A stretch of DNA of 64,000 bases, taken from Haliotis asinina. Its lineage: Eukaryota > Mollusca > Gastropoda > Lepetellida > Haliotidae. Made by a program: the position numbers and the translations under genes. The notes under the pieces were generated by a model, which was given only the letters and a program-made list of their open reading frames with translations, did no database searches and was not told where the DNA came from. The stretch covers positions 37,707 to 101,706 of the forward strand of contig NW_027133922.1 in NCBI RefSeq assembly GCF_037392515.1. Reading direction: 5' to 3'. Shown here piece by piece: positions 1 through 19,720 of this stretch (position 1 is the stretch's first letter; every line of letters starts with the position of its first letter).

Positions 1-336
1 GAGGATGAGACAGCGGAATTGAGAGCAGAGATTGATGAGGCCACTGGGAAAAAAGATGACTGGTCTGGTCAGGAGTCTCAGGGCAAGAATGGTACGAAGT
101 CAGCTCCGGATGTTAGTGACGTTCAAGAAACAACAAGTAGTTTGGAGAAACCAGAGAATGGAAACAACAGGAAACGGCCCTCTTCTCCAGTGAGAAAGAC
201 TGATAAGGCAGCCAAGATGGTGCACGACACCATGAAAGATGTCCACAGAAGAGAGGCCACAGGGTGGAGGCCAGAAGCCCGAGATGTTGACACAGATGAT
301 TCTGAGAGCAGCGGCTTGGGAAGTCCTGTGACATAG
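1..336 (+). CDS. LINE ORF1 protein, C-terminal fragment
   Basis: The frame is open from base 1 through the TAG at 334-336, so this is the C-terminal part (111 codons) of a protein that starts outside the window. In LINEs the first ORF encodes an RNA-binding chaperone that packages the element RNA with ORF2p. The visible part is hydrophilic: Glu/Asp/Lys/Gly/Ser-rich at first, then a basic NRKRPSSPVRK stretch that could be a nuclear localisation signal, then an acidic end (DVDTDDSESSGLGS). No zinc knuckle, RRM or coiled coil is visible in this part. The call as ORF1 rests on position and strand, upstream of ORF2 in the same element. A TTG at 19 lies in frame, but nothing supports a start there. 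Confidence 0.65.
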   Translation, partial: EDETAELRAEIDEATGKKDDWSGQESQGKNGTKSAPDVSDVQETTSSLEKPENGNNRKRPSSPVRKTDKAAKMVHDTMKDVHRREATGWRPEARDVDTDDSESSGLGSPVT

Positions 337-714: not shown

Positions 715-3700
715 ATGTGTAGTATAGCAAGTATAAATTGTGCTGGTATCAGGGGAGGGACTAGAAGGCGTGTGTTATGTGAGGAATGGAAGAGAATGAA
801 TGTGGATATTTTATTTCTGCAAGAATGTCATGTTGCTTGTGTGAAAGAAGGAGAGACTGTAGAAAGACTGTTTGAATGTAAGGCCTTCTGGAGTTTTGGT
901 ACGGGAAACGCACGTGGGGTTGGTATTTTATTATCTGGTAAATTGAATTATAAAATTGTTCATTTTTATTACGACTTTGATGGCAGGCTCTTTGTTTTAG
1001 ATATTGATATTGGTAGTCATTGTTATAGATTTATAAATATTTATGCTCCAAACCATTACTCAGATAGAAGGGATTTCTTGTTATCATTGGAAAATCATTT
1101 TGTTACTCGCCGCCATGTTGTGCTTGGGGGAGATTTTAATTTTGTTTTATCAACCACTTTAGATAAAGTTGGGGGGAATCCAAATTGTGGTACTGCAGGG
1201 GCAACGATTTTGAAACGTTTTTTAAATTCCTATAAATTAACGGACCCTTTCCGGGCATTACATAAGAATAAAGTCAAAACGACATGGCGAGGTGGAAATG
1301 TTAGCTGCCGGCTAGATAGATTTTATATCTCTGCTCCATTATTACCGGTTGTTAAAAGTTGTGATGTGCAACCATGTTCCATTTCTGACCACGATTATTG
1401 TGTTCTGGAGTTGGAGGTTGTTGATTGCATCTCTGTAGGACCTGGTTATTGTAAATTCAATAATTCTTTACTTAAAGACAAATCGTTTATATTGGAATTT
1501 CAAAAGTTTTGGGAATCTTTACATGTTCAGGCGGATTTGTCTCTTTCGGATTGGGATAGCCTTAAGGCTCAAATTAAGACTTTTGTTTTGGCTTATGGGA
1601 GAAAGGTAGCTGCCAATAAAAGAGGTATTTTACAGCAGCTTCAAAGGCGATACAGAGATCTGATAGCTGCAGAAGGTCAGAGACCTGGCGAGTATGCAGA
1701 ACAGTTAAAAGCAATCAAGTCACAACTTTATGATTTTCATTATGATAGGGTACAGGGAAGTGCAATCCGCTCCAGAGTGCAGGTTTTGGAAAATAATGAG
1801 AAACCATCAAAACAATTTTTACAGACTGAATTTCAACGCTCTGGAGATAAAACCATTCATATTTTGGAGAATGGTTCTGAAACTTATGATAAAAATGATA
1901 CTATTCGGAACTATTGCAGGGAGTTTTACCAAAATTTATACACCCCTGAGGAAATTGATGATTTTTATTGTTCCGAATTCCTTGAGGATTTGCCTTTCTT
2001 GGATAGGGCCTCGGCTGATAGCATAGAGGGAGCTGTGACAAAAGAGGAGATTTTACTAGCGCTTCGCGGGATGGATAATAATAAAGCCCCTGGGTTGGAT
2101 GGTTTAAGTAAGGAGTTTTATCTCAAGTTTTGGCCTTTATTACAAGATGTATTATTACATATTTATAATTTGTCAATACAATTGGGTACTCTTAGTGATT
2201 CTCAGAAATTAGGTTGTATTTCTTTGTTATGTAAGGACCCCAAAGCTCCTCAGTTGTTACGTAACTGGCGCCCTATCAGCCTCTTAAATGTAGATTATAA
2301 AATATTGTCTAGGGTTGTACAAAACCGGTTGTCATCAGTCATTGCTGAGATTGTGCACCCTGATCAGACATGTTCAATCAGGGGCAGATCTATAGCGGAC
2401 AACATACATCTTCTACGCAATGTAGTTGATTATGTGGAGCAAAAAGGAGATTCTGTGGCCTTTGTTTGCCTTGATCAGGAGAAGGCTTTTGATCGGGTAA
2501 ATCATGATTTCATGTTCAGGGCCCTACATCAGTATGGGTTTGGTCCAGAGTTTATTAACCTGGTCAGCCTGTTATATTACAACGTTAGTAGTACCGTGTT
2601 AGTAAACGGTTTTTTTTCGGACAAATTCCCTGTGAGGAGGGGGGTCAGGCAAGGCTGTAGCCTAAGCCCCTTGTTGTATGTTTTAGTTTTCGAACCTTTT
2701 GCTATTAAAGTAAGGAGTGACAAGTTAATCAAGGGCATTAAAATTCCCGGTGTTAACGAAGAAGCCAAAATATCAGCTTATGCTGATGATGGGACTGGTA
2801 TATGTGCGAATGAGATGAGTGTTAGACGGTTGCTTCAAGTGAGTGAGTGGTATGGTAGAGGTACTGGTGCCCGTCTCAACATGGCCAAAACAAAGGCCAT
2901 ATCTTTCGGGAAATGGCGTTCTTCGGCCGACCATCCTTTCGGTATATCATGGCCCGATTCTTGCAAAATTTTGGGGGTTGTTTTTGGTAGTAATGTCACT
3001 CCTGATGATAACTGGAATAAAATTTTAACAAAATTCCACGGGGTTCTAAATTTTAACTTTAAAGATAGGTTCTTATCCATATATGGTAAGTCCACTATTT
3101 GCAATGTCATGGCCATGTCGAAGTTGTGGTATGTTGCAGCTGTATTGCACATGCCCAAACACTTTGTCGATATTTTCACACGAGTAGCATTTGATTTTTT
3201 CTGGGAATCCCATCATTTTGAGCCTTTAGCTAGAAGTATTCTATATAATGATAAGGAGTTTGGAGGTGTTAATTTTCCCCATATACCAACACGCCTTCAT
3301 GCTTTACGTTTGTATCATTTACATAAAATTATTAATAATAGTCAGTGTAAATATGCATGTTTTGCCTTGTATTGGATAGGGTTTTCTCTCAAAGAAATTA
3401 ATTCTGATTTTGCTTCCAATTTATTACCTCATTCTGACTACATACCGCCATATTATAAAAAGATTTTAGAATCTTATCGATATTTTAAGTCACTGTACCC
3501 TAATTATAATTGGTTTCAACCTGTTAAAAGTGGTGTATTTTACCAAATGTTAATTACTCATACATGTACAGAGCCTGTCATCTTCAAACACTTTCCGGAT
3601 GTGCTTTTTAAGCCTGCTTTTCTACTACTATGCGACTCGTTTCTTGACCCCGTACTGAAAAATTTCTCATGGCGTCTCCTTCATGACATTATCCCAACTA

Positions 3701-4161
3701 ATTATACACTTTATTGCAGACGTCATTCTTTAATTAAAACATGTACTTTTTGTAACGAAACTGAGTCTGTTGAGCACTTATTCTTTAATTGTAACATGGT
3801 TTCTTCTCTTTGGAGTATTGTCAGTAAATGGGTTTTGGATCTATCGTTTGGCTTAATTGATTTAAATGCTAGTAAGATTCGATTTAATCAGTTGTTTTTT
3901 TGTCATTGTAATTATCGGAAATGTGTCATTGTATACCTGGTGTGTTTGGCTAAACATCAGATTTGGCGTGATAGGTGTAATTTCAAAAATGGTAGGAAAG
4001 GGGTGACTAAGGAAAGTATGGTTGCCCGGTTTTTGGAAAGATTACGTTTTCGAATTGTTGTAGACAAAGCCCGTTTACCTGACACTTTATTTGATAAGTA
4101 CTGGGTGCAATGTAAATTGTTTTGCACCACTAATAATAACAAGGTGGAATTTACTTTTTAA
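715..4161 (+). CDS. LINE ORF2 protein: endonuclease-reverse transcriptase
   Basis: Intact protein of 1148 residues, ATG at 715 and TAA at 4159-4161. It would nick target DNA and reverse-transcribe the element RNA in the nucleus. Residues 1 to about 235 are an AP-endonuclease-like domain: SINCAG (Asn8), LQECH (Glu37), YAPN (110-113), GGDFN (Asp140, Asn142), the LDRFY stretch (Asp201) and the terminal SDH (224-226). All expected catalytic positions are present. The reverse transcriptase spans roughly 440-760: KAPGLDG (457-463), the NWRPISLLN block, LDQEKAFDR (catalytic Asp587), RRGVRQGCSLSPLL, and AYADD with catalytic Asp691 and Asp692. A C-terminal zinc-binding motif C-x2-C-x7-H-x4-C uses Cys1010, Cys1013, His1021 and Cys1026. 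No RNase H domain was seen. The length fits L1/Tx1-type ORF2 proteins. An unbroken frame with all catalytic residues implies a recent, possibly active copy. The start is the first ATG in frame and leads directly into the endonuclease motif. Confidence 0.95.
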   Translation: MCSIASINCAGIRGGTRRRVLCEEWKRMNVDILFLQECHVACVKEGETVERLFECKAFWSFGTGNARGVGILLSGKLNYKIVHFYYDFDGRLFVLDIDIGSHCYRFINIYAPNHYSDRRDFLLSLENHFVTRRHVVLGGDFNFVLSTTLDKVGGNPNCGTAGATILKRFLNSYKLTDPFRALHKNKVKTTWRGGNVSCRLDRFYISAPLLPVVKSCDVQPCSISDHDYCVLELEVVDCISVGPGYCKFNNSLLKDKSFILEFQKFWESLHVQADLSLSDWDSLKAQIKTFVLAYGRKVAANKRGILQQLQRRYRDLIAAEGQRPGEYAEQLKAIKSQLYDFHYDRVQGSAIRSRVQVLENNEKPSKQFLQTEFQRSGDKTIHILENGSETYDKNDTIRNYCREFYQNLYTPEEIDDFYCSEFLEDLPFLDRASADSIEGAVTKEEILLALRGMDNNKAPGLDGLSKEFYLKFWPLLQDVLLHIYNLSIQLGTLSDSQKLGCISLLCKDPKAPQLLRNWRPISLLNVDYKILSRVVQNRLSSVIAEIVHPDQTCSIRGRSIADNIHLLRNVVDYVEQKGDSVAFVCLDQEKAFDRVNHDFMFRALHQYGFGPEFINLVSLLYYNVSSTVLVNGFFSDKFPVRRGVRQGCSLSPLLYVLVFEPFAIKVRSDKLIKGIKIPGVNEEAKISAYADDGTGICANEMSVRRLLQVSEWYGRGTGARLNMAKTKAISFGKWRSSADHPFGISWPDSCKILGVVFGSNVTPDDNWNKILTKFHGVLNFNFKDRFLSIYGKSTICNVMAMSKLWYVAAVLHMPKHFVDIFTRVAFDFFWESHHFEPLARSILYNDKEFGGVNFPHIPTRLHALRLYHLHKIINNSQCKYACFALYWIGFSLKEINSDFASNLLPHSDYIPPYYKKILESYRYFKSLYPNYNWFQPVKSGVFYQMLITHTCTEPVIFKHFPDVLFKPAFLLLCDSFLDPVLKNFSWRLLHDIIPTNYTLYCRRHSLIKTCTFCNETESVEHLFFNCNMVSSLWSIVSKWVLDLSFGLIDLNASKIRFNQLFFCHCNYRKCVIVYLVCLAKHQIWRDRCNFKNGRKGVTKESMVARFLERLRFRIVVDKARLPDTLFDKYWVQCKLFCTTNNNKVEFTF

Positions 4162-4339
4162 TATGTAAATGTTTGATATACTATGTTTCTCAATGTCCAT
4201 TTAATTCTACATCTATATAACATGTATATGTAAATATAAATTATAAGTACTTTCCACCTTTAGTTTTGTATATGTCCCTCAGTTGAAATAGTCTGCCATC
4301 CCATGTATAAAGTTTTATTTTATGGTATGACTATTAGGA

Positions 4340-4447
4340 CCCAGACACCTTTTCTTTTAATCATCATCTCTGTATACCATCAACATTTTCATTTAATGTA
4401 TACTGCTGTATAGACTCATGTCCATTCCTATCCTCAAGGTGTCTGGG
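4340..4447 (+). repeat. Inverted repeat in LINE 3' UTR (12-bp arms)
   Basis: CCCAGACACCTT at 4340-4351 is the exact reverse complement of AAGGTGTCTGGG at 4436-4447. The intervening 84 nt hold a second short hairpin at 4399-4412. The structure ends 42 nt before the first poly(A) base. Confidence 0.7.
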
Positions 4448-4476
4448 GAGTATTGTTCTTAGGCCCATTTAATGTA

Positions 4477-4482
4477 AATAAA
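4477..4482 (+). promoter_or_regulatory. Polyadenylation signal AATAAA of the LINE
   Basis: Canonical hexamer, 7 bases before the A-rich tail starts at 4490, in the expected position for the element's transcript end. Confidence 0.75.
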
Positions 4483-4489
4483 CTTTATT

Positions 4490-4513
4490 AAAAACAAAAA
4501 AAAAAAAAAAAAA
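4490..4513 (+). repeat. Poly(A) tail of the LINE
   Basis: Five A, one C, then eighteen A, followed directly by U1 sequence. It marks the 3' junction made by target-primed reverse transcription. Because the target continues CAAGG, the junction can be placed anywhere between U1 nt 33/34 and 36/37, depending on whether CAA is counted as tail. Confidence 0.9.
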
Positions 4514-4644
4514 CAAGGCTGTGGGCCCGGGGCGAGACCTTTCCATTGCACCTCGGTTTGGTTGACCCCTGCGATCGTCCCAAATGTGGACGACTCGGGT
4601 GCGCAATTTATAAGTGTGGGGGACTGCGTTCGCGCTCTCCCCTT
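4514..4644 (+). pseudogene. U1: U1 snRNA gene, 5' part removed by LINE insertion (nt 34-164)
   Basis: Nucleotides 34-164 of U1 are present and identical to the copy at 5116-5279. Nucleotides 1-33, with the 5' splice-site-pairing end and half of stem-loop I, are replaced on this side by the LINE 3' end; they probably lie upstream of the element, outside the window. The gene is broken and cannot make U1. Its identity with the array consensus suggests a recent insertion. Confidence 0.95.
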
Positions 4645-5115
4645 GAAAATCAACCCCAAAAATAGATATTTTCAGTTGACACTTCCCCCACTTCCAAATC
4701 ACTTGAAGATGATTGTTTTCCCGTGTGTGTATGTGCAAACTATGTGTTTTTAATGCGCATGTGTTAATCTGTTTGCTGTGGCAAAAGTATATGTTTAAAG
4801 CAAGTCTGAGTTTGATGTATTTCAGATGGGATCGCTTTGTCAGCCAGTTGTTGTGTTTGGACTGTCAAGTTGTCTCCCCTGCGTCCCGGATCAGAGATGC
4901 ACGTGCATGCAGTCTAAATGGAAATAAATCCGTCTGTGTGTGTTTTTATCTATCAGTAATTTTTTCACAAAGTGAAGGTACTAATGGACTGTTCTGTACA
5001 ATAAACTGTACGAACAATTAACCTGCCATGAAATATATGTGAAGCGTTGATGATGTGACACCTGAATAGGGCAACGCCAGGGTGATGTAAGTGAAAACTG
5101 GAACCTGTCCCAAGC

Positions 5116-5279
5116 ATACTTACCTGGCACAGGCTTTACAGTGATCCGCAAGGCTGTGGGCCCGGGGCGAGACCTTTCCATTGCACCTCGGTTTGGTTGA
5201 CCCCTGCGATCGTCCCAAATGTGGACGACTCGGGTGCGCAATTTATAAGTGTGGGGGACTGCGTTCGCGCTCTCCCCTT
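5116..5279 (+). ncRNA. U1: U1 snRNA, copy P1 (reference copy)
   Basis: U1 snRNA recognises 5' splice sites in the spliceosome. The gene aligns with the remembered human U1 over 164 nt without gaps. Nt 1-11 are AUACUUACCUG, the splice-site-pairing end. Helix H pairs 12-15 with 119-122. Stem I pairs ACAG (23-26) with CUGU (39-42) around the 12-nt loop 27-38. Stem II ends in AUUGCAC (65-71), the U1A site. Stem III pairs UCGUCC (95-100) with GGACGA (108-113) around CAAAUGU. Stem IV keeps the UUCG-capped GC helix. Helix H, stem I and stem III differ from human by compensatory pairs. Two protein sites are unusual: loop I reads AUCCGCAAG where U1-70K normally meets AUCANGAAG, and the Sm site reads AAUUUAUAA instead of AAUUUGUGG. 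It is therefore either a lineage-typical U1, a variant U1, or a decayed array. Confidence 0.93.
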
Positions 5280-5292
5280 GAAAATCAACCCC

Positions 5293-5301
5293 AAAAATAG
5301 A
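5293..5301 (+). terminator. 3'-box-like snRNA 3'-end signal (representative)
   Basis: AAAAATAGA begins 14 nt after the U1 3' end and fits the AAARNNAGA core of the metazoan snRNA 3' box, which directs Integrator cleavage of Pol II snRNA transcripts. The upstream GTTT part of the vertebrate consensus is absent (CCCC instead). The element recurs at the same offset in other units; three + copies carry a base change in it (13556, 14191, 37043). Confidence 0.55.
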
Positions 5302-5531
5302 TATTTTCAGTTGACACTTCCCCCACTTCCAAATCACTTGAAGATGATTGTTTTCCCGTGTGTGTATGTGCAAACTATGTGTTTTTAATGCGCATGTGTT
5401 AATCTGTTTGCTGTGGCAAAAGTATATGTTTAAAGCAAGTCTGAGTTTGATGTATTTCAGATGGGATCGCTTTGTCAGCCAGTTGTTGTGTTTGGACTGT
5501 CAAGTTGTCTCCCCTGCGTCCCGGATCAGAG

Positions 5532-5543
5532 ATGCACGTGCAT
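5532..5543 (+). promoter_or_regulatory. 12-bp palindrome at -219, candidate distal element (representative)
   Basis: ATGCACGTGCAT is its own reverse complement and carries a CACGTG core. It lies at -219 to -208 from the next U1 start (5751), where vertebrate snRNA genes keep their distal sequence element with octamer-type ATGC sites. The position is suggestive; the function is inferred. Two units have the central T changed to C (24589, 25859). Confidence 0.4.
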
Positions 5544-5691
5544 GCAGTCTAAATGGAAATAAATCCGTCTGTGTGTGTTTTTATCTATCAGTAATTTTTT
5601 CACAAAGTGAAGGTACTAATGGACTGTTCTGTACAATAAACTGTACGAACAATTAACCTGCCATGAAATATATGTGAAGCGTTGATGATGT

Positions 5692-5707
5692 GACACCTGA
5701 ATAGGGC
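5692..5707 (+). promoter_or_regulatory. PSE-like stretch at -59 to -44 (representative)
   Basis: GACACCTGAATAGGGC sits at the usual place of the snRNA proximal sequence element and loosely resembles the vertebrate TCACC-N-TNA type. There is no TATA box downstream, as expected for a Pol II-transcribed U1 gene. PSEs diverge quickly between phyla, so the call is positional. Confidence 0.35.
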
Positions 5708-5750
5708 AACGCCAGGGTGATGTAAGTGAAAACTGGAACCTGTCCCAAGC

Positions 5751-5914
5751 ATACTTACCTGGCACAGGCTTTACAGTGATCCGCAAGGCTGTGGGCCCGG
5801 GGCGAGACCTTTCCATTGCACCTCGGTTTGGTTGACCCCTGCGATCGTCCCAAATGTGGACGACTCGGGTGCGCAATTTATAAGTGTGGGGGACTGCGTT
5901 CGCGCTCTCCCCTT
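5751..5914 (+). ncRNA. U1: U1 snRNA, copy P2
   Basis: Matches P1. Confidence 0.92.
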
Positions 5915-6385
5915 GAAAATCAACCCCAAAAATAGATATTTTCAGTTGACACTTCCCCCACTTCCAAATCACTTGAAGATGATTGTTTTCCCGTGTGTGT
6001 ATGTGCAAACTATGTGTTTTTAATGCGCATGTGTTAATCTGTTTGCTGTGGCAAAAGTATATGTTTAAAGCAAGTCTGAGTTTGATGTATTTCAGATGGG
6101 ATCGCTTTGTCAGCCAGTTGTTGTGTTTGGACTGTCAAGTTGTCTCCCCTGCGTCCCGGATCAGAGATGCACGTGCATGCAGTCTAAATGGAAATAAATC
6201 CGTCTGTGTGTGTTTTTATCTATCAGTAATTTTTTCACAAAGTGAAGGTACTAATGGACTGTTCTGTACAATAAACTGTACGAACAATTAACCTGCCATG
6301 AAATATATGTGAAGCGTTGATGATGTGACACCTGAATAGGGCAACGCCAGGGTGATGTAAGTGAAAACTGGAACCTGTCCCAAGC

Positions 6386-6549
6386 ATACTTACCTGGCAC
6401 AGGCTTTACAGTGATCCGCAAGGCTGTGGGCCCGGGGCGAGACCTTTCCATTGCACCTCGGTTTGGTTGACCCCTGCGATCGTCCCAAATGTGGACGACT
6501 CGGGTGCGCAATTTATAAGTGTGGGGGACTGCGTTCGCGCTCTCCCCTT
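6386..6549 (+). ncRNA. U1: U1 snRNA, copy P3
   Basis: Matches P1. Confidence 0.92.
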
Positions 6550-7020
6550 GAAAATCAACCCCAAAAATAGATATTTTCAGTTGACACTTCCCCCACTTCC
6601 AAATCACTTGAAGATGATTGTTTTCCCGTGTGTGTATGTGCAAACTATGTGTTTTTAATGCGCATGTGTTAATCTGTTTGCTGTGGCAAAAGTATATGTT
6701 TAAAGCAAGTCTGAGTTTGATGTATTTCAGATGGGATCGCTTTGTCAGCCAGTTGTTGTGTTTGGACTGTCAAGTTGTCTCCCCTGCGTCCCGGATCAGA
6801 GATGCACGTGCATGCAGTCTAAATGGAAATAAATCCGTCTGTGTGTGTTTTTATCTATCAGTAATTTTTTCACAAAGTGAAGGTACTAATGGACTGTTCT
6901 GTACAATAAACTGTACGAACAATTAACCTGCCATGAAATATATGTGAAGCGTTGATGATGTGACACCTGAATAGGGCAACGCCAGGGTGATGTAAGTGAA
7001 AACTGGAACCTGTCCCAAGC

Positions 7021-7184
7021 ATACTTACCTGGCACAGGCTTTACAGTGATCCGCAAGGCTGTGGGCCCGGGGCGAGACCTTTCCATTGCACCTCGGTTTG
7101 GTTGACCCCTGCGATCGTCCCAAATGTGGACGACTCGGGTGCGCAATTTATAAGTGTGGGGGACTGCGTTCGCGCTCTCCCCTT
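7021..7184 (+). ncRNA. U1: U1 snRNA, copy P4
   Basis: Matches P1. Confidence 0.92.
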
Positions 7185-7655
7185 GAAAATCAACCCCAAA
7201 AATAGATATTTTCAGTTGACACTTCCCCCACTTCCAAATCACTTGAAGATGATTGTTTTCCCGTGTGTGTATGTGCAAACTATGTGTTTTTAATGCGCAT
7301 GTGTTAATCTGTTTGCTGTGGCAAAAGTATATGTTTAAAGCAAGTCTGAGTTTGATGTATTTCAGATGGGATCGCTTTGTCAGCCAGTTGTTGTGTTTGG
7401 ACTGTCAAGTTGTCTCCCCTGCGTCCCGGATCAGAGATGCACGTGCATGCAGTCTAAATGGAAATAAATCCGTCTGTGTGTGTTTTTATCTATCAGTAAT
7501 TTTTTCACAAAGTGAAGGTACTAATGGACTGTTCTGTACAATAAACTGTACGAACAATTAACCTGCCATGAAATATATGTGAAGCGTTGATGATGTGACA
7601 CCTGAATAGGGCAACGCCAGGGTGATGTAAGTGAAAACTGGAACCTGTCCCAAGC

Positions 7656-7819
7656 ATACTTACCTGGCACAGGCTTTACAGTGATCCGCAAGGCTGTGGG
7701 CCCGGGGCGAGACCTTTCCATTGCACCTCGGTTTGGTTGACCCCTGCGATCGTCCCAAATGTGGACGACTCGGGTGCGCAATTTATAAGTGTGGGGGACT
7801 GCGTTCGCGCTCTCCCCTT
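7656..7819 (+). ncRNA. U1: U1 snRNA, copy P5
   Basis: Matches P1. Confidence 0.92.
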
Positions 7820-8290
7820 GAAAATCAACCCCAAAAATAGATATTTTCAGTTGACACTTCCCCCACTTCCAAATCACTTGAAGATGATTGTTTTCCCGTG
7901 TGTGTATGTGCAAACTATGTGTTTTTAATGCGCATGTGTTAATCTGTTTGCTGTGGCAAAAGTATATGTTTAAAGCAAGTCTGAGTTTGATGTATTTCAG
8001 ATGGGATCGCTTTGTCAGCCAGTTGTTGTGTTTGGACTGTCAAGTTGTCTCCCCTGCGTCCCGGATCAGAGATGCACGTGCATGCAGTCTAAATGGAAAT
8101 AAATCCGTCTGTGTGTGTTTTTATCTATCAGTAATTTTTTCACAAAGTGAAGGTACTAATGGACTGTTCTGTACAATAAACTGTACGAACAATTAACCTG
8201 CCATGAAATATATGTGAAGCGTTGATGATGTGACACCTGAATAGGGCAACGCCAGGGTGATGTAAGTGAAAACTGGAACCTGTCCCAAGC

Positions 8291-8454
8291 ATACTTACCT
8301 GGCACAGGCTTTACAGTGATCCGCAAGGCTGTGGGCCCGGGGCGAGACCTTTCCATTGCACCTCGGTTTGGTTGACCCCTGCGATCGTCCCAAATGTGGA
8401 CGACTCGGGTGCGCAATTTATAAGTGTGGGGGACTGCGTTCGCGCTCTCCCCTT
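8291..8454 (+). ncRNA. U1: U1 snRNA, copy P6
   Basis: Matches P1. Confidence 0.92.
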
Positions 8455-8925
8455 GAAAATCAACCCCAAAAATAGATATTTTCAGTTGACACTTCCCCCA
8501 CTTCCAAATCACTTGAAGATGATTGTTTTCCCGTGTGTGTATGTGCAAACTATGTGTTTTTAATGCGCATGTGTTAATCTGTTTGCTGTGGCAAAAGTAT
8601 ATGTTTAAAGCAAGTCTGAGTTTGATGTATTTCAGATGGGATCGCTTTGTCAGCCAGTTGTTGTGTTTGGACTGTCAAGTTGTCTCCCCTGCGTCCCGGA
8701 TCAGAGATGCACGTGCATGCAGTCTAAATGGAAATAAATCCGTCTGTGTGTGTTTTTATCTATCAGTAATTTTTTCACAAAGTGAAGGTACTAATGGACT
8801 GTTCTGTACAATAAACTGTACGAACAATTAACCTGCCATGAAATATATGTGAAGCGTTGATGATGTGACACCTGAATAGGGCAACGCCAGGGTGATGTAA
8901 GTGAAAACTGGAACCTGTCCCAAGC

Positions 8926-9089
8926 ATACTTACCTGGCACAGGCTTTACAGTGATCCGCAAGGCTGTGGGCCCGGGGCGAGACCTTTCCATTGCACCTCG
9001 GTTTGGTTGACCCCTGCGATCGTCCCAAATGTGGACGACTCGGGTGCGCAATTTATAAGTGTGGGGGACTGCGTTCGCGCTCTCCCCTT
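8926..9089 (+). ncRNA. U1: U1 snRNA, copy P7
   Basis: Matches P1. Confidence 0.92.
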
Positions 9090-9560
9090 GAAAATCAACC
9101 CCAAAAATAGATATTTTCAGTTGACACTTCCCCCACTTCCAAATCACTTGAAGATGATTGTTTTCCCGTGTGTGTATGTGCAAACTATGTGTTTTTAATG
9201 CGCATGTGTTAATCTGTTTGCTGTGGCAAAAGTATATGTTTAAAGCAAGTCTGAGTTTGATGTATTTCAGATGGGATCGCTTTGTCAGCCAGTTGTTGTG
9301 TTTGGACTGTCAAGTTGTCTCCCCTGCGTCCCGGATCAGAGATGCACGTGCATGCAGTCTAAATGGAAATAAATCCGTCTGTGTGTGTTTTTATCTATCA
9401 GTAATTTTTTCACAAAGTGAAGGTACTAATGGACTGTTCTGTACAATAAACTGTACGAACAATTAACCTGCCATGAAATATATGTGAAGCGTTGATGATG
9501 TGACACCTGAATAGGGCAACGCCAGGGTGATGTAAGTGAAAACTGGAACCTGTCCCAAGC

Positions 9561-9724
9561 ATACTTACCTGGCACAGGCTTTACAGTGATCCGCAAGGCT
9601 GTGGGCCCGGGGCGAGACCTTTCCATTGCACCTCGGTTTGGTTGACCCCTGCGATCGTCCCAAATGTGGACGACTCGGGTGCGCAATTTATAAGTGTGGG
9701 GGACTGCGTTCGCGCTCTCCCCTT
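9561..9724 (+). ncRNA. U1: U1 snRNA, copy P8
   Basis: Matches P1. Confidence 0.92.
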
Positions 9725-10195
9725 GAAAATCAACCCCAAAAATAGATATTTTCAGTTGACACTTCCCCCACTTCCAAATCACTTGAAGATGATTGTTTTC
9801 CCGTGTGTGTATGTGCAAACTATGTGTTTTTAATGCGCATGTGTTAATCTGTTTGCTGTGGCAAAAGTATATGTTTAAAGCAAGTCTGAGTTTGATGTAT
9901 TTCAGATGGGATCGCTTTGTCAGCCAGTTGTTGTGTTTGGACTGTCAAGTTGTCTCCCCTGCGTCCCGGATCAGAGATGCACGTGCATGCAGTCTAAATG
10001 GAAATAAATCCGTCTGTGTGTGTTTTTATCTATCAGTAATTTTTTCACAAAGTGAAGGTACTAATGGACTGTTCTGTACAATAAACTGTACGAACAATTA
10101 ACCTGCCATGAAATATATGTGAAGCGTTGATGATGTGACACCTGAATAGGGCAACGCCAGGGTGATGTAAGTGAAAACTGGAACCTGTCCCAAGC

Positions 10196-10359
10196 ATACT
10201 TACCTGGCACAGGCTTTACAGTGATCCGCAAGGCTGTGGGCCCGGGGCGAGACCTTTCCATTGCACCTCGGTTTGGTTGACCCCTGCGATCGTCCCAAAT
10301 GTGGACGACTCGGGTGCGCAATTTATAAGTGTGGGGGACTGCGTTCGCGCTCTCCCCTT
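10196..10359 (+). ncRNA. U1: U1 snRNA, copy P9
   Basis: Matches P1. Confidence 0.92.
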
Positions 10360-10830
10360 GAAAATCAACCCCAAAAATAGATATTTTCAGTTGACACTTC
10401 CCCCACTTCCAAATCACTTGAAGATGATTGTTTTCCCGTGTGTGTATGTGCAAACTATGTGTTTTTAATGCGCATGTGTTAATCTGTTTGCTGTGGCAAA
10501 AGTATATGTTTAAAGCAAGTCTGAGTTTGATGTATTTCAGATGGGATCGCTTTGTCAGCCAGTTGTTGTGTTTGGACTGTCAAGTTGTCTCCCCTGCGTC
10601 CCGGATCAGAGATGCACGTGCATGCAGTCTAAATGGAAATAAATCCGTCTGTGTGTGTTTTTATCTATCAGTAATTTTTTCACAAAGTGAAGGTACTAAT
10701 GGACTGTTCTGTACAATAAACTGTACGAACAATTAACCTGCCATGAAATATATGTGAAGCGTTGATGATGTGACACCTGAATAGGGCAACGCCAGGGTGA
10801 TGTAAGTGAAAACTGGAACCTGTCCCAAGC

Positions 10831-10994
10831 ATACTTACCTGGCACAGGCTTTACAGTGATCCGCAAGGCTGTGGGCCCGGGGCGAGACCTTTCCATTGCA
10901 CCTCGGTTTGGTTGACCCCTGCGATCGTCCCAAATGTGGACGACTCGGGTGCGCAATTTATAAGTGTGGGGGACTGCGTTCGCGCTCTCCCCTT
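10831..10994 (+). ncRNA. U1: U1 snRNA, copy P10
   Basis: Matches P1. Confidence 0.92.
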
Positions 10995-11465
10995 GAAAAT
11001 CAACCCCAAAAATAGATATTTTCAGTTGACACTTCCCCCACTTCCAAATCACTTGAAGATGATTGTTTTCCCGTGTGTGTATGTGCAAACTATGTGTTTT
11101 TAATGCGCATGTGTTAATCTGTTTGCTGTGGCAAAAGTATATGTTTAAAGCAAGTCTGAGTTTGATGTATTTCAGATGGGATCGCTTTGTCAGCCAGTTG
11201 TTGTGTTTGGACTGTCAAGTTGTCTCCCCTGCGTCCCGGATCAGAGATGCACGTGCATGCAGTCTAAATGGAAATAAATCCGTCTGTGTGTGTTTTTATC
11301 TATCAGTAATTTTTTCACAAAGTGAAGGTACTAATGGACTGTTCTGTACAATAAACTGTACGAACAATTAACCTGCCATGAAATATATGTGAAGCGTTGA
11401 TGATGTGACACCTGAATAGGGCAACGCCAGGGTGATGTAAGTGAAAACTGGAACCTGTCCCAAGC

Positions 11466-11629
11466 ATACTTACCTGGCACAGGCTTTACAGTGATCCGCA
11501 AGGCTGTGGGCCCGGGGCGAGACCTTTCCATTGCACCTCGGTTTGGTTGACCCCTGCGATCGTCCCAAATGTGGACGACTCGGGTGCGCAATTTATAAGT
11601 GTGGGGGACTGCGTTCGCGCTCTCCCCTT
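11466..11629 (+). ncRNA. U1: U1 snRNA, copy P11
   Basis: Matches P1. Confidence 0.92.
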
Positions 11630-12100
11630 GAAAATCAACCCCAAAAATAGATATTTTCAGTTGACACTTCCCCCACTTCCAAATCACTTGAAGATGATTG
11701 TTTTCCCGTGTGTGTATGTGCAAACTATGTGTTTTTAATGCGCATGTGTTAATCTGTTTGCTGTGGCAAAAGTATATGTTTAAAGCAAGTCTGAGTTTGA
11801 TGTATTTCAGATGGGATCGCTTTGTCAGCCAGTTGTTGTGTTTGGACTGTCAAGTTGTCTCCCCTGCGTCCCGGATCAGAGATGCACGTGCATGCAGTCT
11901 AAATGGAAATAAATCCGTCTGTGTGTGTTTTTATCTATCAGTAATTTTTTCACAAAGTGAAGGTACTAATGGACTGTTCTGTACAATAAACTGTACGAAC
12001 AATTAACCTGCCATGAAATATATGTGAAGCGTTGATGATGTGACACCTGAATAGGGCAACGCCAGGGTGATGTAAGTGAAAACTGGAACCTGTCCCAAGC

Positions 12101-12264
12101 ATACTTACCTGGCACAGGCTTTACAGTGATCCGCAAGGCTGTGGGCCCGGGGCGAGACCTTTCCATTGCACCTCGGTTTGGTTGACCCCTGCGATCGTCC
12201 CAAATGTGGACGACTCGGGTGCGCAATTTATAAGTGTGGGGGACTGCGTTCGCGCTCTCCCCTT
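12101..12264 (+). ncRNA. U1: U1 snRNA, copy P12
   Basis: Matches P1. Confidence 0.92.
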
Positions 12265-12735
12265 GAAAATCAACCCCAAAAATAGATATTTTCAGTTGAC
12301 ACTTCCCCCACTTCCAAATCACTTGAAGATGATTGTTTTCCCGTGTGTGTATGTGCAAACTATGTGTTTTTAATGCGCATGTGTTAATCTGTTTGCTGTG
12401 GCAAAAGTATATGTTTAAAGCAAGTCTGAGTTTGATGTATTTCAGATGGGATCGCTTTGTCAGCCAGTTGTTGTGTTTGGACTGTCAAGTTGTCTCCCCT
12501 GCGTCCCGGATCAGAGATGCACGTGCATGCAGTCTAAATGGAAATAAATCCGTCTGTGTGTGTTTTTATCTATCAGTAATTTTTTCACAAAGTGAAGGTA
12601 CTAATGGACTGTTCTGTACAATAAACTGTACGAACAATTAACCTGCCATGAAATATATGTGAAGCGTTGATGATGTGACACCTGAATAGGGCAACGCCAG
12701 GGTGATGTAAGTGAAAACTGGAACCTGTCCCAAGC

Positions 12736-12899
12736 ATACTTACCTGGCACAGGCTTTACAGTGATCCGCAAGGCTGTGGGCCCGGGGCGAGACCTTTCCA
12801 TTGCACCTCGGTTTGGTTGACCCCTGCGATCGTCCCAAATGTGGACGACTCGGGTGCGCAATTTATAAGTGTGGGGGACTGCGTTCGCGCTCTCCCCTT
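12736..12899 (+). ncRNA. U1: U1 snRNA, copy P13
   Basis: Matches P1. Confidence 0.92.
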
Positions 12900-13370
12900 G
12901 AAAATCAACCCCAAAAATAGATATTTTCAGTTGACACTTCCCCCACTTCCAAATCACTTGAAGATGATTGTTTTCCCGTGTGTGTATGTGCAAACTATGT
13001 GTTTTTAATGCGCATGTGTTAATCTGTTTGCTGTGGCAAAAGTATATGTTTAAAGCAAGTCTGAGTTTGATGTATTTCAGATGGGATCGCTTTGTCAGCC
13101 AGTTGTTGTGTTTGGACTGTCAAGTTGTCTCCCCTGCGTCCCGGATCAGAGATGCACGTGCATGCAGTCTAAATGGAAATAAATCCGTCTGTGTGTGTTT
13201 TTATCTATCAGTAATTTTTTCACAAAGTGAAGGTACTAATGGACTGTTCTGTACAATAAACTGTACGAACAATTAACCTGCCATGAAATATATGTGAAGC
13301 GTTGATGATGTGACACCTGAATAGGGCAACGCCAGGGTGATGTAAGTGAAAACTGGAACCTGTCCCAAGC

Positions 13371-13534
13371 ATACTTACCTGGCACAGGCTTTACAGTGAT
13401 CCGCAAGGCTGTGGGCCCGGGGCGAGACCTTTCCATTGCACCTCGGTTTGGTTGACCCCTGCGATCGTCCCAAATGTGGACGACTCGGGTGCGCAATTTA
13501 TAAGTGTGGGGGACTGCGTTCGCGCTCTCCCCTT
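13371..13534 (+). ncRNA. U1: U1 snRNA, copy P14
   Basis: Gene matches P1. The 3'-box-like signal has its last A changed to G at 13556, as in P15. Confidence 0.92.
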
Positions 13535-14005
13535 GAAAATCAACCCCAAAAATAGGTATTTTCAGTTGACACTTCCCCCACTTCCAAATCACTTGAAGAT
13601 GATTGTTTTCCCGTGTGTGTATGTGCAAACTATGTGTTTTTAATGCGCATGTGTTAATCTGTTTGCTGTGGCAAAAGTATATGTTTAAAGCAAGTCTGAG
13701 TTTGATGTATTTCAGATGGGATCGCTTTGTCAGCCAGTTGTTGTGTTTGGACTGTCAAGTTGTCTCCCCTGCGTCCCGGATCAGAGATGCACGTGCATGC
13801 AGTCTAAATGGAAATAAATCCGTCTGTGTGTGTTTTTATCTATCAGTAATTTTTTCACAAAGTGAAGGTACTAATGGACTGTTCTGTACAATAAACTGTA
13901 CGAACAATTAACCTGCCATGAAATATATGTGAAGCGTTGATGATGTGACACCTGAATAGGGCAACGCCAGGGTGATGTAAGTGAAAACTGGAACCTGTCC
14001 CAAGC

Positions 14006-14169
14006 ATACTTACCTGGCACAGGCTTTACAGTGATCCGCAAGGCTGTGGGCCCGGGGCGAGACCTTTCCATTGCACCTCGGTTTGGTTGACCCCTGCGAT
14101 CGTCCCAAATGTGGACGACTCGGGTGCGCAATTTATAAGTGTGGGGGACTGCGTTCGCGCTCTCCCCTT
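14006..14169 (+). ncRNA. U1: U1 snRNA, copy P15
   Basis: Gene matches P1. It shares the 3'-box A to G change (14191) with its neighbour P14. Confidence 0.92.
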
Positions 14170-14640
14170 GAAAATCAACCCCAAAAATAGGTATTTTCAG
14201 TTGACACTTCCCCCACTTCCAAATCACTTGAAGATGATTGTTTTCCCGTGTGTGTATGTGCAAACTATGTGTTTTTAATGCGCATGTGTTAATCTGTTTG
14301 CTGTGGCAAAAGTATATGTTTAAAGCAAGTCTGAGTTTGATGTATTTCAGATGGGATCGCTTTGTCAGCCAGTTGTTGTGTTTGGACTGTCAAGTTGTCT
14401 CCCCTGCGTCCCGGATCAGAGATGCACGTGCATGCAGTCTAAATGGAAATAAATCCGTCTGTGTGTGTTTTTATCTATCAGTAATTTTTTCACAAAGTGA
14501 AGGTACTAATGGACTGTTCTGTACAATAAACTGTACGAACAATTAACCTGCCATGAAATATATGTGAAGCGTTGATGATGTGACACCTGAATAGGGCAAC
14601 GCCAGGGTGATGTAAGTGAAAACTGGAACCTGTCCCAAGC

Positions 14641-14804
14641 ATACTTACCTGGCACAGGCTTTACAGTGATCCGCAAGGCTGTGGGCCCGGGGCGAGACCT
14701 TTCCATTGCACCTCGGTTTGGTTGACCCCTGCGATCGTCCCAAATGTGGACGACTCGGGTGCGCAATTTATAAGTGTGGGGGACTGCGTTCGCGCTCTCC
14801 CCTT
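14641..14804 (+). ncRNA. U1: U1 snRNA, copy P16
   Basis: Gene matches P1. The spacer after it has a private C to T change at 15042. Confidence 0.92.
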
Positions 14805-15275
14805 GAAAATCAACCCCAAAAATAGATATTTTCAGTTGACACTTCCCCCACTTCCAAATCACTTGAAGATGATTGTTTTCCCGTGTGTGTATGTGCAAAC
14901 TATGTGTTTTTAATGCGCATGTGTTAATCTGTTTGCTGTGGCAAAAGTATATGTTTAAAGCAAGTCTGAGTTTGATGTATTTCAGATGGGATCGCTTTGT
15001 CAGCCAGTTGTTGTGTTTGGACTGTCAAGTTGTCTCCCCTGTGTCCCGGATCAGAGATGCACGTGCATGCAGTCTAAATGGAAATAAATCCGTCTGTGTG
15101 TGTTTTTATCTATCAGTAATTTTTTCACAAAGTGAAGGTACTAATGGACTGTTCTGTACAATAAACTGTACGAACAATTAACCTGCCATGAAATATATGT
15201 GAAGCGTTGATGATGTGACACCTGAATAGGGCAACGCCAGGGTGATGTAAGTGAAAACTGGAACCTGTCCCAAGC

Positions 15276-15439
15276 ATACTTACCTGGCACAGGCTTTACA
15301 GTGATCCGCAAGGCTGTGGGCCCGGGGCGAGACCTTTCCATTGCACCTCGGTTTGGTTGACCCCTGCGATCGTCCCAAATGTGGACGACTCGGGTGCGCA
15401 ATTTATAAGTGTGGGGGACTGCGTTCGCGCTCTCCCCTT
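15276..15439 (+). ncRNA. U1: U1 snRNA, copy P17
   Basis: Matches P1. Confidence 0.92.
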
Positions 15440-15910
15440 GAAAATCAACCCCAAAAATAGATATTTTCAGTTGACACTTCCCCCACTTCCAAATCACTTG
15501 AAGATGATTGTTTTCCCGTGTGTGTATGTGCAAACTATGTGTTTTTAATGCGCATGTGTTAATCTGTTTGCTGTGGCAAAAGTATATGTTTAAAGCAAGT
15601 CTGAGTTTGATGTATTTCAGATGGGATCGCTTTGTCAGCCAGTTGTTGTGTTTGGACTGTCAAGTTGTCTCCCCTGCGTCCCGGATCAGAGATGCACGTG
15701 CATGCAGTCTAAATGGAAATAAATCCGTCTGTGTGTGTTTTTATCTATCAGTAATTTTTTCACAAAGTGAAGGTACTAATGGACTGTTCTGTACAATAAA
15801 CTGTACGAACAATTAACCTGCCATGAAATATATGTGAAGCGTTGATGATGTGACACCTGAATAGGGCAACGCCAGGGTGATGTAAGTGAAAACTGGAACC
15901 TGTCCCAAGC

Positions 15911-16074
15911 ATACTTACCTGGCACAGGCTTTACAGTGATCCGCAAGGCTGTGGGCCCGGGGCGAGACCTTTCCATTGCACCTCGGTTTGGTTGACCCCT
16001 GCGATCGTCCCAAATGTGGACGACTCGGGTGCGCAATTTATAAGTGTGGGGGACTGCGTTCGCGCTCTCCCCTT
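15911..16074 (+). ncRNA. U1: U1 snRNA, copy P18
   Basis: Matches P1. Confidence 0.92.
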
Positions 16075-16545
16075 GAAAATCAACCCCAAAAATAGATATT
16101 TTCAGTTGACACTTCCCCCACTTCCAAATCACTTGAAGATGATTGTTTTCCCGTGTGTGTATGTGCAAACTATGTGTTTTTAATGCGCATGTGTTAATCT
16201 GTTTGCTGTGGCAAAAGTATATGTTTAAAGCAAGTCTGAGTTTGATGTATTTCAGATGGGATCGCTTTGTCAGCCAGTTGTTGTGTTTGGACTGTCAAGT
16301 TGTCTCCCCTGCGTCCCGGATCAGAGATGCACGTGCATGCAGTCTAAATGGAAATAAATCCGTCTGTGTGTGTTTTTATCTATCAGTAATTTTTTCACAA
16401 AGTGAAGGTACTAATGGACTGTTCTGTACAATAAACTGTACGAACAATTAACCTGCCATGAAATATATGTGAAGCGTTGATGATGTGACACCTGAATAGG
16501 GCAACGCCAGGGTGATGTAAGTGAAAACTGGAACCTGTCCCAAGC

Positions 16546-16709
16546 ATACTTACCTGGCACAGGCTTTACAGTGATCCGCAAGGCTGTGGGCCCGGGGCGA
16601 GACCTTTCCATTGCACCTCGGTTTGGTTGACCCCTGCGATCGTCCCAAATGTGGACGACTCGGGTGCGCAATTTATAAGTGTGGGGGACTGCGTTCGCGC
16701 TCTCCCCTT
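16546..16709 (+). ncRNA. U1: U1 snRNA, copy P19
   Basis: Matches P1. Confidence 0.92.
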
Positions 16710-17180
16710 GAAAATCAACCCCAAAAATAGATATTTTCAGTTGACACTTCCCCCACTTCCAAATCACTTGAAGATGATTGTTTTCCCGTGTGTGTATGTG
16801 CAAACTATGTGTTTTTAATGCGCATGTGTTAATCTGTTTGCTGTGGCAAAAGTATATGTTTAAAGCAAGTCTGAGTTTGATGTATTTCAGATGGGATCGC
16901 TTTGTCAGCCAGTTGTTGTGTTTGGACTGTCAAGTTGTCTCCCCTGCGTCCCGGATCAGAGATGCACGTGCATGCAGTCTAAATGGAAATAAATCCGTCT
17001 GTGTGTGTTTTTATCTATCAGTAATTTTTTCACAAAGTGAAGGTACTAATGGACTGTTCTGTACAATAAACTGTACGAACAATTAACCTGCCATGAAATA
17101 TATGTGAAGCGTTGATGATGTGACACCTGAATAGGGCAACGCCAGGGTGATGTAAGTGAAAACTGGAACCTGTCCCAAGC

Positions 17181-17344
17181 ATACTTACCTGGCACAGGCT
17201 TTACAGTGATCCGCAAGGCTGTGGGCCCGGGGCGAGACCTTTCCATTGCACCTCGGTTTGGTTGACCCCTGCGATCGTCCCAAATGTGGACGACTCGGGT
17301 GCGCAATTTATAAGTGTGGGGGACTGCGTTCGCGCTCTCCCCTT
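17181..17344 (+). ncRNA. U1: U1 snRNA, copy P20
   Basis: Matches P1. Confidence 0.92.
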
Positions 17345-17815
17345 GAAAATCAACCCCAAAAATAGATATTTTCAGTTGACACTTCCCCCACTTCCAAATC
17401 ACTTGAAGATGATTGTTTTCCCGTGTGTGTATGTGCAAACTATGTGTTTTTAATGCGCATGTGTTAATCTGTTTGCTGTGGCAAAAGTATATGTTTAAAG
17501 CAAGTCTGAGTTTGATGTATTTCAGATGGGATCGCTTTGTCAGCCAGTTGTTGTGTTTGGACTGTCAAGTTGTCTCCCCTGCGTCCCGGATCAGAGATGC
17601 ACGTGCATGCAGTCTAAATGGAAATAAATCCGTCTGTGTGTGTTTTTATCTATCAGTAATTTTTTCACAAAGTGAAGGTACTAATGGACTGTTCTGTACA
17701 ATAAACTGTACGAACAATTAACCTGCCATGAAATATATGTGAAGCGTTGATGATGTGACACCTGAATAGGGCAACGCCAGGGTGATGTAAGTGAAAACTG
17801 GAACCTGTCCCAAGC

Positions 17816-17979
17816 ATACTTACCTGGCACAGGCTTTACAGTGATCCGCAAGGCTGTGGGCCCGGGGCGAGACCTTTCCATTGCACCTCGGTTTGGTTGA
17901 CCCCTGCGATCGTCCCAAATGTGGACGACTCGGGTGCGCAATTTATAAGTGTGGGGGACTGCGTTCGCGCTCTCCCCTT
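17816..17979 (+). ncRNA. U1: U1 snRNA, copy P21
   Basis: Matches P1. Confidence 0.92.
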
Positions 17980-18450
17980 GAAAATCAACCCCAAAAATAG
18001 ATATTTTCAGTTGACACTTCCCCCACTTCCAAATCACTTGAAGATGATTGTTTTCCCGTGTGTGTATGTGCAAACTATGTGTTTTTAATGCGCATGTGTT
18101 AATCTGTTTGCTGTGGCAAAAGTATATGTTTAAAGCAAGTCTGAGTTTGATGTATTTCAGATGGGATCGCTTTGTCAGCCAGTTGTTGTGTTTGGACTGT
18201 CAAGTTGTCTCCCCTGCGTCCCGGATCAGAGATGCACGTGCATGCAGTCTAAATGGAAATAAATCCGTCTGTGTGTGTTTTTATCTATCAGTAATTTTTT
18301 CACAAAGTGAAGGTACTAATGGACTGTTCTGTACAATAAACTGTACGAACAATTAACCTGCCATGAAATATATGTGAAGCGTTGATGATGTGACACCTGA
18401 ATAGGGCAACGCCAGGGTGATGTAAGTGAAAACTGGAACCTGTCCCAAGC

Positions 18451-18614
18451 ATACTTACCTGGCACAGGCTTTACAGTGATCCGCAAGGCTGTGGGCCCGG
18501 GGCGAGACCTTTCCATTGCACCTCGGTTTGGTTGACCCCTGCGATCGTCCCAAATGTGGACGACTCGGGTGCGCAATTTATAAGTGTGGGGGACTGCGTT
18601 CGCGCTCTCCCCTT
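18451..18614 (+). ncRNA. U1: U1 snRNA, copy P22
   Basis: Gene matches P1. Spacer has a private C to T change at 18655. Confidence 0.92.
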
Positions 18615-19085
18615 GAAAATCAACCCCAAAAATAGATATTTTCAGTTGACACTTTCCCCACTTCCAAATCACTTGAAGATGATTGTTTTCCCGTGTGTGT
18701 ATGTGCAAACTATGTGTTTTTAATGCGCATGTGTTAATCTGTTTGCTGTGGCAAAAGTATATGTTTAAAGCAAGTCTGAGTTTGATGTATTTCAGATGGG
18801 ATCGCTTTGTCAGCCAGTTGTTGTGTTTGGACTGTCAAGTTGTCTCCCCTGCGTCCCGGATCAGAGATGCACGTGCATGCAGTCTAAATGGAAATAAATC
18901 CGTCTGTGTGTGTTTTTATCTATCAGTAATTTTTTCACAAAGTGAAGGTACTAATGGACTGTTCTGTACAATAAACTGTACGAACAATTAACCTGCCATG
19001 AAATATATGTGAAGCGTTGATGATGTGACACCTGAATAGGGCAACGCCAGGGTGATGTAAGTGAAAACTGGAACCTGTCCCAAGC

Positions 19086-19249
19086 ATACTTACCTGGCAC
19101 AGGCTTTACAGTGATCCGCAAGGCTGTGGGCCCGGGGCGAGACCTTTCCATTGCACCTCGGTTTGGTTGACCCCTGCGATCGTCCCAAATGTGGACGACT
19201 CGGGTGCGCAATTTATAAGTGTGGGGGACTGCGTTCGCGCTCTCCCCTT
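19086..19249 (+). ncRNA. U1: U1 snRNA, copy P23
   Basis: Matches P1. Confidence 0.92.
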
Positions 19250-19720
19250 GAAAATCAACCCCAAAAATAGATATTTTCAGTTGACACTTCCCCCACTTCC
19301 AAATCACTTGAAGATGATTGTTTTCCCGTGTGTGTATGTGCAAACTATGTGTTTTTAATGCGCATGTGTTAATCTGTTTGCTGTGGCAAAAGTATATGTT
19401 TAAAGCAAGTCTGAGTTTGATGTATTTCAGATGGGATCGCTTTGTCAGCCAGTTGTTGTGTTTGGACTGTCAAGTTGTCTCCCCTGCGTCCCGGATCAGA
19501 GATGCACGTGCATGCAGTCTAAATGGAAATAAATCCGTCTGTGTGTGTTTTTATCTATCAGTAATTTTTTCACAAAGTGAAGGTACTAATGGACTGTTCT
19601 GTACAATAAACTGTACGAACAATTAACCTGCCATGAAATATATGTGAAGCGTTGATGATGTGACACCTGAATAGGGCAACGCCAGGGTGATGTAAGTGAA
19701 AACTGGAACCTGTCCCAAGC

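What the first reader, a model, noticed from the sequence alone, without database searches (positions are those of the whole stretch)
4477..4644. LINE inserted inside a U1 snRNA gene: candidate U1-targeting Tx1-like element
The poly(A) tail runs directly into U1 nt 34, in sense orientation, at the head of a U1 array. Tx1-group LINEs are known to target multicopy RNA genes (Keno in U2, Mutsu in 5S), and I do not recall a well-described U1-specific member. One insertion cannot prove specificity: the other 92 complete copies in the window are empty.
Basis: partly seen in the sequence, partly recalled or inferred. Interest (0 to 1): 0.85.

Follow-up and report, generated by a model that had tools for sequence, protein, structure and literature searches.

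The report
LINE family targeting U1 snRNA genes
A jumping gene in this animal genome repeatedly lands at one spot inside the U1 splicing-RNA genes, and its closest relatives in the same genome do the same in the U4 and U2 splicing-RNA genes.

Summary
An APE-type LINE (intact 1148-aa ORF2, window 715-4161) ends in an 18-nt poly(A) that runs into U1 nt 34 at 4514, at the head of a 635-bp U1 array. Of 12 elements found by their 3' end, 8 sit at U1 nt 33/34, 1 at U1 nt 38 after filler, 2 in the head of another copy of the same element, and 1 is a short relic outside U1. The exact empty site occurs 807 times. Seven heads carry U1 nt 1-23. ORF2 is under purifying selection (dN/dS 0.10-0.18), so this is a U1-specific family, not one lucky hit.

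A sister family (58% identical) sits in U4 genes at nt 31/32. Further relatives (41-43%) sit in U2 genes at or near the published Keno/Utopia position. U2-type copies that landed in a satellite carry U2 nt ~2-22 at the 5' end, so their RNA holds the snRNA's start; I infer that these LINEs use the snRNA promoter. The paper searches showed no U1- or U4-targeting LINE. Placement among named Tx1 elements could not be tested.

The parts
1..336 (+). 3' part of LINE ORF1; the full ORF1 in the C13 sister copy is 349 aa with a CCHC-like motif (CLRCHEIGHVRREC, read by eye)
   Evidence: Pfam found no domain in that full-length ORF1
715..4161 (+). LINE ORF2, 1148 aa, intact
730..1392 (+). APE-type endonuclease domain of ORF2 (residues 6-226)
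   Evidence: Pfam PF03372, E 1.5e-10
2242..2982 (+). reverse transcriptase domain of ORF2 (residues 510-756)
   Evidence: Pfam PF00078, E 4.2e-37
3652..3813 (+). C-terminal zinc-binding domain (zf-RVT, residues 980-1033)
   Evidence: Pfam PF13966, E 8.1e-9
4162..4495 (+). LINE 3' UTR
   Evidence: the 3' end query matched 13 genome places
4496..4513 (+). poly(A) tail, 18 nt; the seven copies measured range from 11 to 39 nt
4514..4644 (+). U1 snRNA gene remnant, nt 34-164 (3' target flank)
4645..5115 (+). spacer of the disrupted U1 unit (nt 34-635 of the unit identical to an intact unit, 602 of 602)
5116..64000 (.). U1 array, mostly 635-bp units, 92 complete empty U1 genes; orientation flips from + to - between 45293 and 46088

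Best explanation
It is a U1-snRNA-gene-specific, APE-encoding non-LTR retrotransposon. It belongs to a snRNA-gene-targeting group that in this one genome also has a U4-specific sister family and several U2-targeting (Keno-like) families. Mechanism: the ORF2 endonuclease nicks the bottom strand between U1 nt 33 and 34, and the free 3' end primes reverse transcription of the poly(A) end of the LINE RNA (inferred from the precise A(n)/nt 34 junctions). The upstream side is joined near U1 nt 23-31. Each insertion truncates one U1 gene out of more than 800. The RNA is most likely made from the host snRNA promoter and begins with the snRNA's first 20-30 nt. That the RNA holds the snRNA start is well supported for U2-type relatives, by copies in a satellite that still carry U2 nt ~2-22; for U1 and U4 it is inferred. 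The confidence given is for the U1-specific LINE; for the promoter step it is about 0.5.
For: 3' flanks: 8 of 12 visible 3' ends at U1 nt 33/34, 1 at nt 38, 2 in U1-LINE heads, 1 relic elsewhere. The 8 lie on C13 (three separate regions), C50 and C106, with 3' UTRs 0-8% diverged and tails of 11-39 A in the 7 measured. 5' flanks: U1 nt 1-23 then GTGATC in 7 heads; the eighth genome match is unrelated. ORF2 dN/dS 0.10-0.18 in five pairs of U1 copies, so coding capacity was selected, not merely duplicated with the array. Tree: U4 with U1A/U1B against four U2 families, 100/100 each. U4 junction string: 4 of 4 genome matches are the U4 LINE. U2 junction string: 55 places, not opened one by one. U2-type copies on C11/C22 (L069, L070) are flanked by satellite, carry U2 nt ~2-22 and show CACAAACT on both sides; C11 and C22 may share one event. 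Marks carried by heads: the nt 24-25 loss is in no intact U1 gene; T at U4 nt 42 is in 5 of 5 heads, but C in 5 of 5 distinct intact U4 genes and 4 of 4 3' flanks.
Against: C13 copies 1 and 2 are an exact 5,953-bp tandem pair, and copies 1-3 and the window copy are about 99.8% alike, so some may be array duplications; independent events are about 5-6, not 8. One relic (L013, 92 bp, 76%) is outside U1. GTGATC at the head may be the LINE's own conserved GTGA and not U1 nt 26-31, so the extent of the 5' loss is ambiguous. The window copy's own 5' junction is anomalous. No RNA data, no enzyme test, one genome.
Confidence: 0.93

Rival explanations
1. One chance insertion into a U1 gene that was then copied around the genome by unequal crossing-over and segmental duplication of the U1 array.
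For: C13 copies 1 and 2 form an exact tandem pair (5,953 bp each) and copies 1-3 are about 99.8% identical to the window copy.
Against: Other copies differ by 5-15% over the 3' four-fifths of the element and by 22-30% in the matched stretches of the 5' part, have different tails and use nt 33 or 34; ORF2 is under purifying selection; the U4 and U2 relatives repeat the pattern in other genes.
Confidence: 0.05
2. A LINE with preference for a short motif that happens to lie in U1, not strict U1 specificity.
For: Two copies sit in the head of another copy, L005 just before CGGG of the head GTGATCCACGGG, which resembles U1 GTGATCCG/CAAGG; one relic is elsewhere; U2-type relatives have copies in satellites.
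Against: 9 of 12 visible 3' ends are in U1 itself, and the two self-insertions lie in heads of elements whose family sits in U1.
Confidence: 0.12
3. The junctions are assembly artefacts of a collapsed repeat array.
For: The window copy's 5' junction is an equal-offset replacement (U1 to offset 220, LINE from 218); the array in the window changes orientation.
Against: The same 3' junction recurs on three contigs with different tail lengths and element subfamilies, and the 5' junctions of seven other heads agree.
Confidence: 0.03

Closest known systems
Keno (Tx1-clade LINE in U2 snRNA genes)
   Same: APE endonuclease; targets a snRNA gene. PMC4640811 (passages) says Keno and Utopia have the same 3' U2 flank and that U2 genes disrupted by Utopia in Phytophthora lack their first 38 bp; relatives in this genome join U2 after nt 35-36. 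The U1 and U4 families are relatives of these (41-43% aa).
   Different: Target is U1 nt 33/34 (U4 nt 31/32 in the sister), not U2; separate 100/100 clade. No Keno sequence was at hand.
Dada-U1 (DNA transposon in U1 snRNA genes)
   Same: Target gene is U1 (PMC3706591, passages).
   Different: Dada is a DDE transposon with 6-7-bp duplications; this is a LINE with RT and poly(A). The zebrafish Dada-U1 duplication GCGAAT/GCGAAC named there is not the sequence at the nt 33/34 junction here.
Utopia / NeSL / R2 group
   Same: Site-specific non-LTR elements; Utopia uses U2 (PMC4640811, passages).
   Different: They use a restriction-like endonuclease; here it is APE, and R2 proteins match far more weakly (8e-28) than human L1 ORF2p (1e-75).
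Mutsu (5S), Dewa (tRNA-Leu spacer)
   Same: Other target-specific LINEs (named in PMC3706591, passages; Tx1 membership recalled).
   Different: Different target genes; sequences were not at hand for comparison.

Membership tests
APE-type LINE of the L1 superfamily | APE endonuclease plus RT in one ORF, poly(A) 3' end | tested here: met
   best solved match human L1 ORF2p 1.3e-75 over residues 3-857
Tx1 clade | RT groups with named Tx1 members in a tree | not testable with these tools
   no named Tx1/Keno/Mutsu sequences available; the tree holds own-genome relatives only
Tx1 clade, target-specific members | sequence-specific insertion | tested here: met
Keno | insertion in U2 snRNA genes | tested here: not met
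   this LINE is in U1; its 41-43% relatives are in U2
Keno | same U2 position for the U2-type relatives in this genome | tested here: inconclusive
   nt 35-36 here against 38 bp for Utopia in Phytophthora (PMC4640811, passages); the letters of the published junction were not seen
Dada-U1 | DDE transposase, no RT | tested here: not met
Utopia/R2 | restriction-like endonuclease | tested here: not met
   Pfam APE domain instead

The most novel reading that the evidence does not exclude
One LINE group has specialised into separate U2, U1 and U4 families that all cut 31-36 nt after the snRNA start, inside functionally central parts of each RNA. They travel as RNAs made from the host snRNA promoter: a snRNA-derived leader, then a conserved intron-like stretch (GTGA...polypyrimidine-YAG), then a structured RNA before ORF1. 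The parasite would thus take its promoter, its landing homology and possibly its splicing from the splicing-RNA gene it destroys.
Probability: 0.35. Interest if true: 0.85.

Novelty: new variant of a known kind. Interest (0 to 1): 0.72.

Why it matters
As of 2015 the only snRNA-gene-specific transposons listed were Keno and Utopia (U2), Dada-U1 and Dada-U6 (PMC4640811, passages). A U1-specific LINE, with a U4-specific sister and U2-targeting relatives in one genome, gives a natural series of retargeted APE endonucleases with intact ORFs. That makes target recognition and target switching in LINEs directly testable. The snRNA leaders suggest how such LINEs get expressed.

Tried and rejected
Chance match: rejected (8 of 9 places are this LINE). 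Single insertion spread by array duplication: rejected as the sole cause, though it fits C13 copies 1 and 2. Ordinary target-site duplication at U1: not found; the 5' flank stops at nt 23 (7 heads) or nt 30 (one older head) and the 3' flank starts at nt 33/34. C7:36676066 as an eighth U1-LINE head: rejected, unrelated (L066). C16:49404910 as a ninth junction: rejected, unrelated (L075). L012 and L013 flanks as U1-LINE heads: no similarity above shuffles. tRNA genes in 14 loci of relatives: none found (ARAGORN, bacterial code). A search for further targets by the shared 5' motif gave 49 exact places on C2, C4, C7, C8, C11, C13, C22 and C106, reversed controls 0; only a sample of their flanks was opened, so U5, U6 or 5S families are not excluded. 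The protein search scored only 40 of 10,394 first-look candidates, so more distant families are not excluded. A plain alignment of the 5' RNA structure was not good enough for pair counts, and none were made. An exact human-like U2 string found nothing; U2 here has one more A.

Full report
Observation. In the window the poly(A) of a LINE (4496-4513) is followed directly by U1 nt 34 (4514), and the U1 remnant runs to 4644. The LINE has an intact 1148-aa ORF2 with APE, RT and zf-RVT domains. The window is G000:C50:37707-101706 of a 1.14-Gb genome in 159 contigs. The organism was not identified.

Other copies. A search with the 3' end (window 3900-4513) found 13 places. Two of them, L009 and L011, match adjoining parts of the query on one strand of C13 about 10 kb apart and are read as one element split by later DNA. 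That leaves 12 elements, each with a visible 3' flank. Eight are at U1 nt 33 or 34: L001-L004, L006-L008 and L011. L012 is at U1 nt 38 after a short filler. L005 and L010 run into the head of another copy (alignment scores 75 and 128 against shuffle maxima of 30 and 29). L013, a relic of about 90 bp at 76% identity, has an unrelated flank. A pattern search for AAAA-N(0-4)-U1 nt 34-47 gave 9 distinct places, 8 of them this LINE. The exact empty site occurs 807 times, so about 1% of sites are filled.

5' ends. At C13:43885893, 43891846, 43909577, 43916795 and 44385789, at the minus-strand head at C13:42643203 and at C106:13623, the flank is U1 nt 1-23 followed by GTGATC, with U1 nt 24-25 missing. 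The string with that loss occurs 8 times in the genome, 7 of them these heads and 1 unrelated. An older copy at 43929930 keeps U1 nt 1-30. Two readings fit: U1 nt 24-33 were lost and GTGATC belongs to the LINE, or the LINE RNA carries a U1 leader with a fixed 2-nt loss. The window copy's own 5' junction, just upstream of the window, is odd: it equals the U1 unit through offset 220 and the C13 copy from the same offset 218. Such an equal-length replacement may be an assembly or conversion event.

Independence. C13 copies 1 and 2 are an exact tandem pair, and copies 1-3 are about 99.8% identical to the window copy, so they may be array duplicates. Subfamily B (C106, L006, L008) matches the window at 93-95% from the ORF2 start to the 3' end, but only at about 70-78% in the matched stretches of the 5' part. 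This suggests recombination near the ORF1/ORF2 border. Counting each divergent lineage once gives about 5-6 insertion events. U1A against U1B has dS 0.18 and dN 0.023 (dN/dS 0.13); five pairs among U1 copies range from 0.10 to 0.18. Five U1 copies have ORF2 without stops.

Relatives. The protein search (40 candidates scored) shows a 58% family on C7 and 41-44% families on C2, C8, C11, C13 and C22. The C7 family sits in U4 genes of an array with units of about 1490 bp. The 3' UTR query matched 6 places: in the 4 near-identical ones the tail runs into U4 nt 32, and the two diverged ones (C10, C7:33948600) have no U4 at the 3' end. Its 5' flank is U4 nt 1-41 then TGAGG in 5 of 5 heads, where 5 of 5 distinct intact U4 genes read have CGAGG, giving a 10- to 15-bp duplication. 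Of nine sampled C2 and C8 3' flanks, seven enter U2 at AGTATCTG, L037 runs into the U2-like head of a further element, and one could not be read to its end. The U2 junction string occurs 55 times genome-wide. In intact U2 of this genome the junction is after nt 35 or 36. The C11/C22 copies sit in a satellite. In the ORF2 tree U4 joins U1A/U1B (100/100) apart from four U2 families (100/100; seven sequences). Human L1 ORF2p is the best solved match.

A leader from the snRNA. U2-type copies in the satellite on C11 and C22 (L069, L070) have satellite and no U2 promoter immediately upstream, yet start with U2 nt ~2-22 and are flanked by CACAAACT on both sides. L064 and L067 also carry U2-derived heads outside an ordinary U2 gene. 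The simplest reading is that the LINE RNA begins at or near the snRNA start. For U1 and U4 the marks carried by heads (nt 24-25 loss; T42) fit the same idea but do not prove it.

A conserved 5' region. The 14 heads compared have YAG followed by RTCKACG-like sequence; a pyrimidine tract precedes it in the 13 whose locus reaches that far, and L072 plus L071 shows it for the fourteenth. In minimum-energy folds of 13 of them, 8 (U4 and seven U2-type) form the same three-way junction; the three U1 segments, L063 and L064 do not. GTGA lies 35-72 nt upstream of the AG in 11 of 12 heads, against a mean of 2.05 and a maximum of 8 in 2000 base shuffles; U4 is the exception. These heads are related by descent, so this is conservation, not independent recurrence. 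The stretch resembles a mini-intron; no RNA was available.

Regularity. The three families cut at 33/34 (U1), 31/32 (U4) and after 35-36 (U2) from +1. From general knowledge (recalled) these are the U1-70K loop, the U4 5' stem-loop K-turn and the U2 branch-site region. The likeness was noted after the fact and not tested.

Literature. [quoted passage not shown] The passages seen of PMC3706591 and PMC8869645 add no U1 or U4 LINE, and PMC11203168 (passages) reports Tx1 in gastropods with no occurrence of 'snRNA' in its main text. Searches (listings) showed no other. Kojima and Fujiwara 2004 was not held and Repbase was not available, so a U1 or U4 family that is only in a database or in papers not held cannot be excluded.

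Changes at checking. The U2 position is now given as at or near the published one, the RNA folds are counted (8 of 13), and the L005/L010 and U4 nt 42 statements were tested.

Noticed in passing
L032, L033, L054, L055 (C7:33.75-33.92 Mb): A sister LINE family is inserted in U4 snRNA genes at nt 31/32 with a 10-15-bp duplication, in a U4 array of about 1490-bp units with U6 nearby.
   Followed up: yes
L069, L070 (C11:28815601-28816000; C22:400301-400700): U2-type LINE copies in a satellite carry U2 nt ~2-22 at the 5' end and CACAAACT on both sides.
   Followed up: partly
C13:43916795-43924180 and about 44379932: U2-type LINEs lie, partly in tandem, in the head of U1-LINEs at AGTATCTGAG, which resembles the U2 target AGTATCTGTTC.
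   Followed up: partly
L014:5958-6011, L046:648-695, L051:458-516 and other heads: Conserved 5' UTR: GTGA, polypyrimidine-YAG, then RTCKACGGGYGGG, in 8 of 13 folds a three-way junction before ORF1.
   Followed up: partly
window 45293-46088: The U1 array reverses orientation here, and many of the lower-scoring U1 copies lie on the minus-strand side; real inversion or assembly fold-back.
   Followed up: no
G000:C50:37087-37095 (just upstream of the window): The window LINE's 5' end is replaced by an equal length (about 218 bp) of U1 unit.
   Followed up: partly
C2:10805691-10981802 and C52: U2 junctions recur mostly every 9.35 kb, suggesting an amplified U2-plus-LINE unit.
   Followed up: no
L071 from about 170; L011 from about 1705: A GAGTGAGTGAGT...TTAATATTTA...CGGCAATATT repeat interrupts LINE copies; it recalls a SINE-like repeat of molluscs (recalled, not tested).
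   Followed up: no
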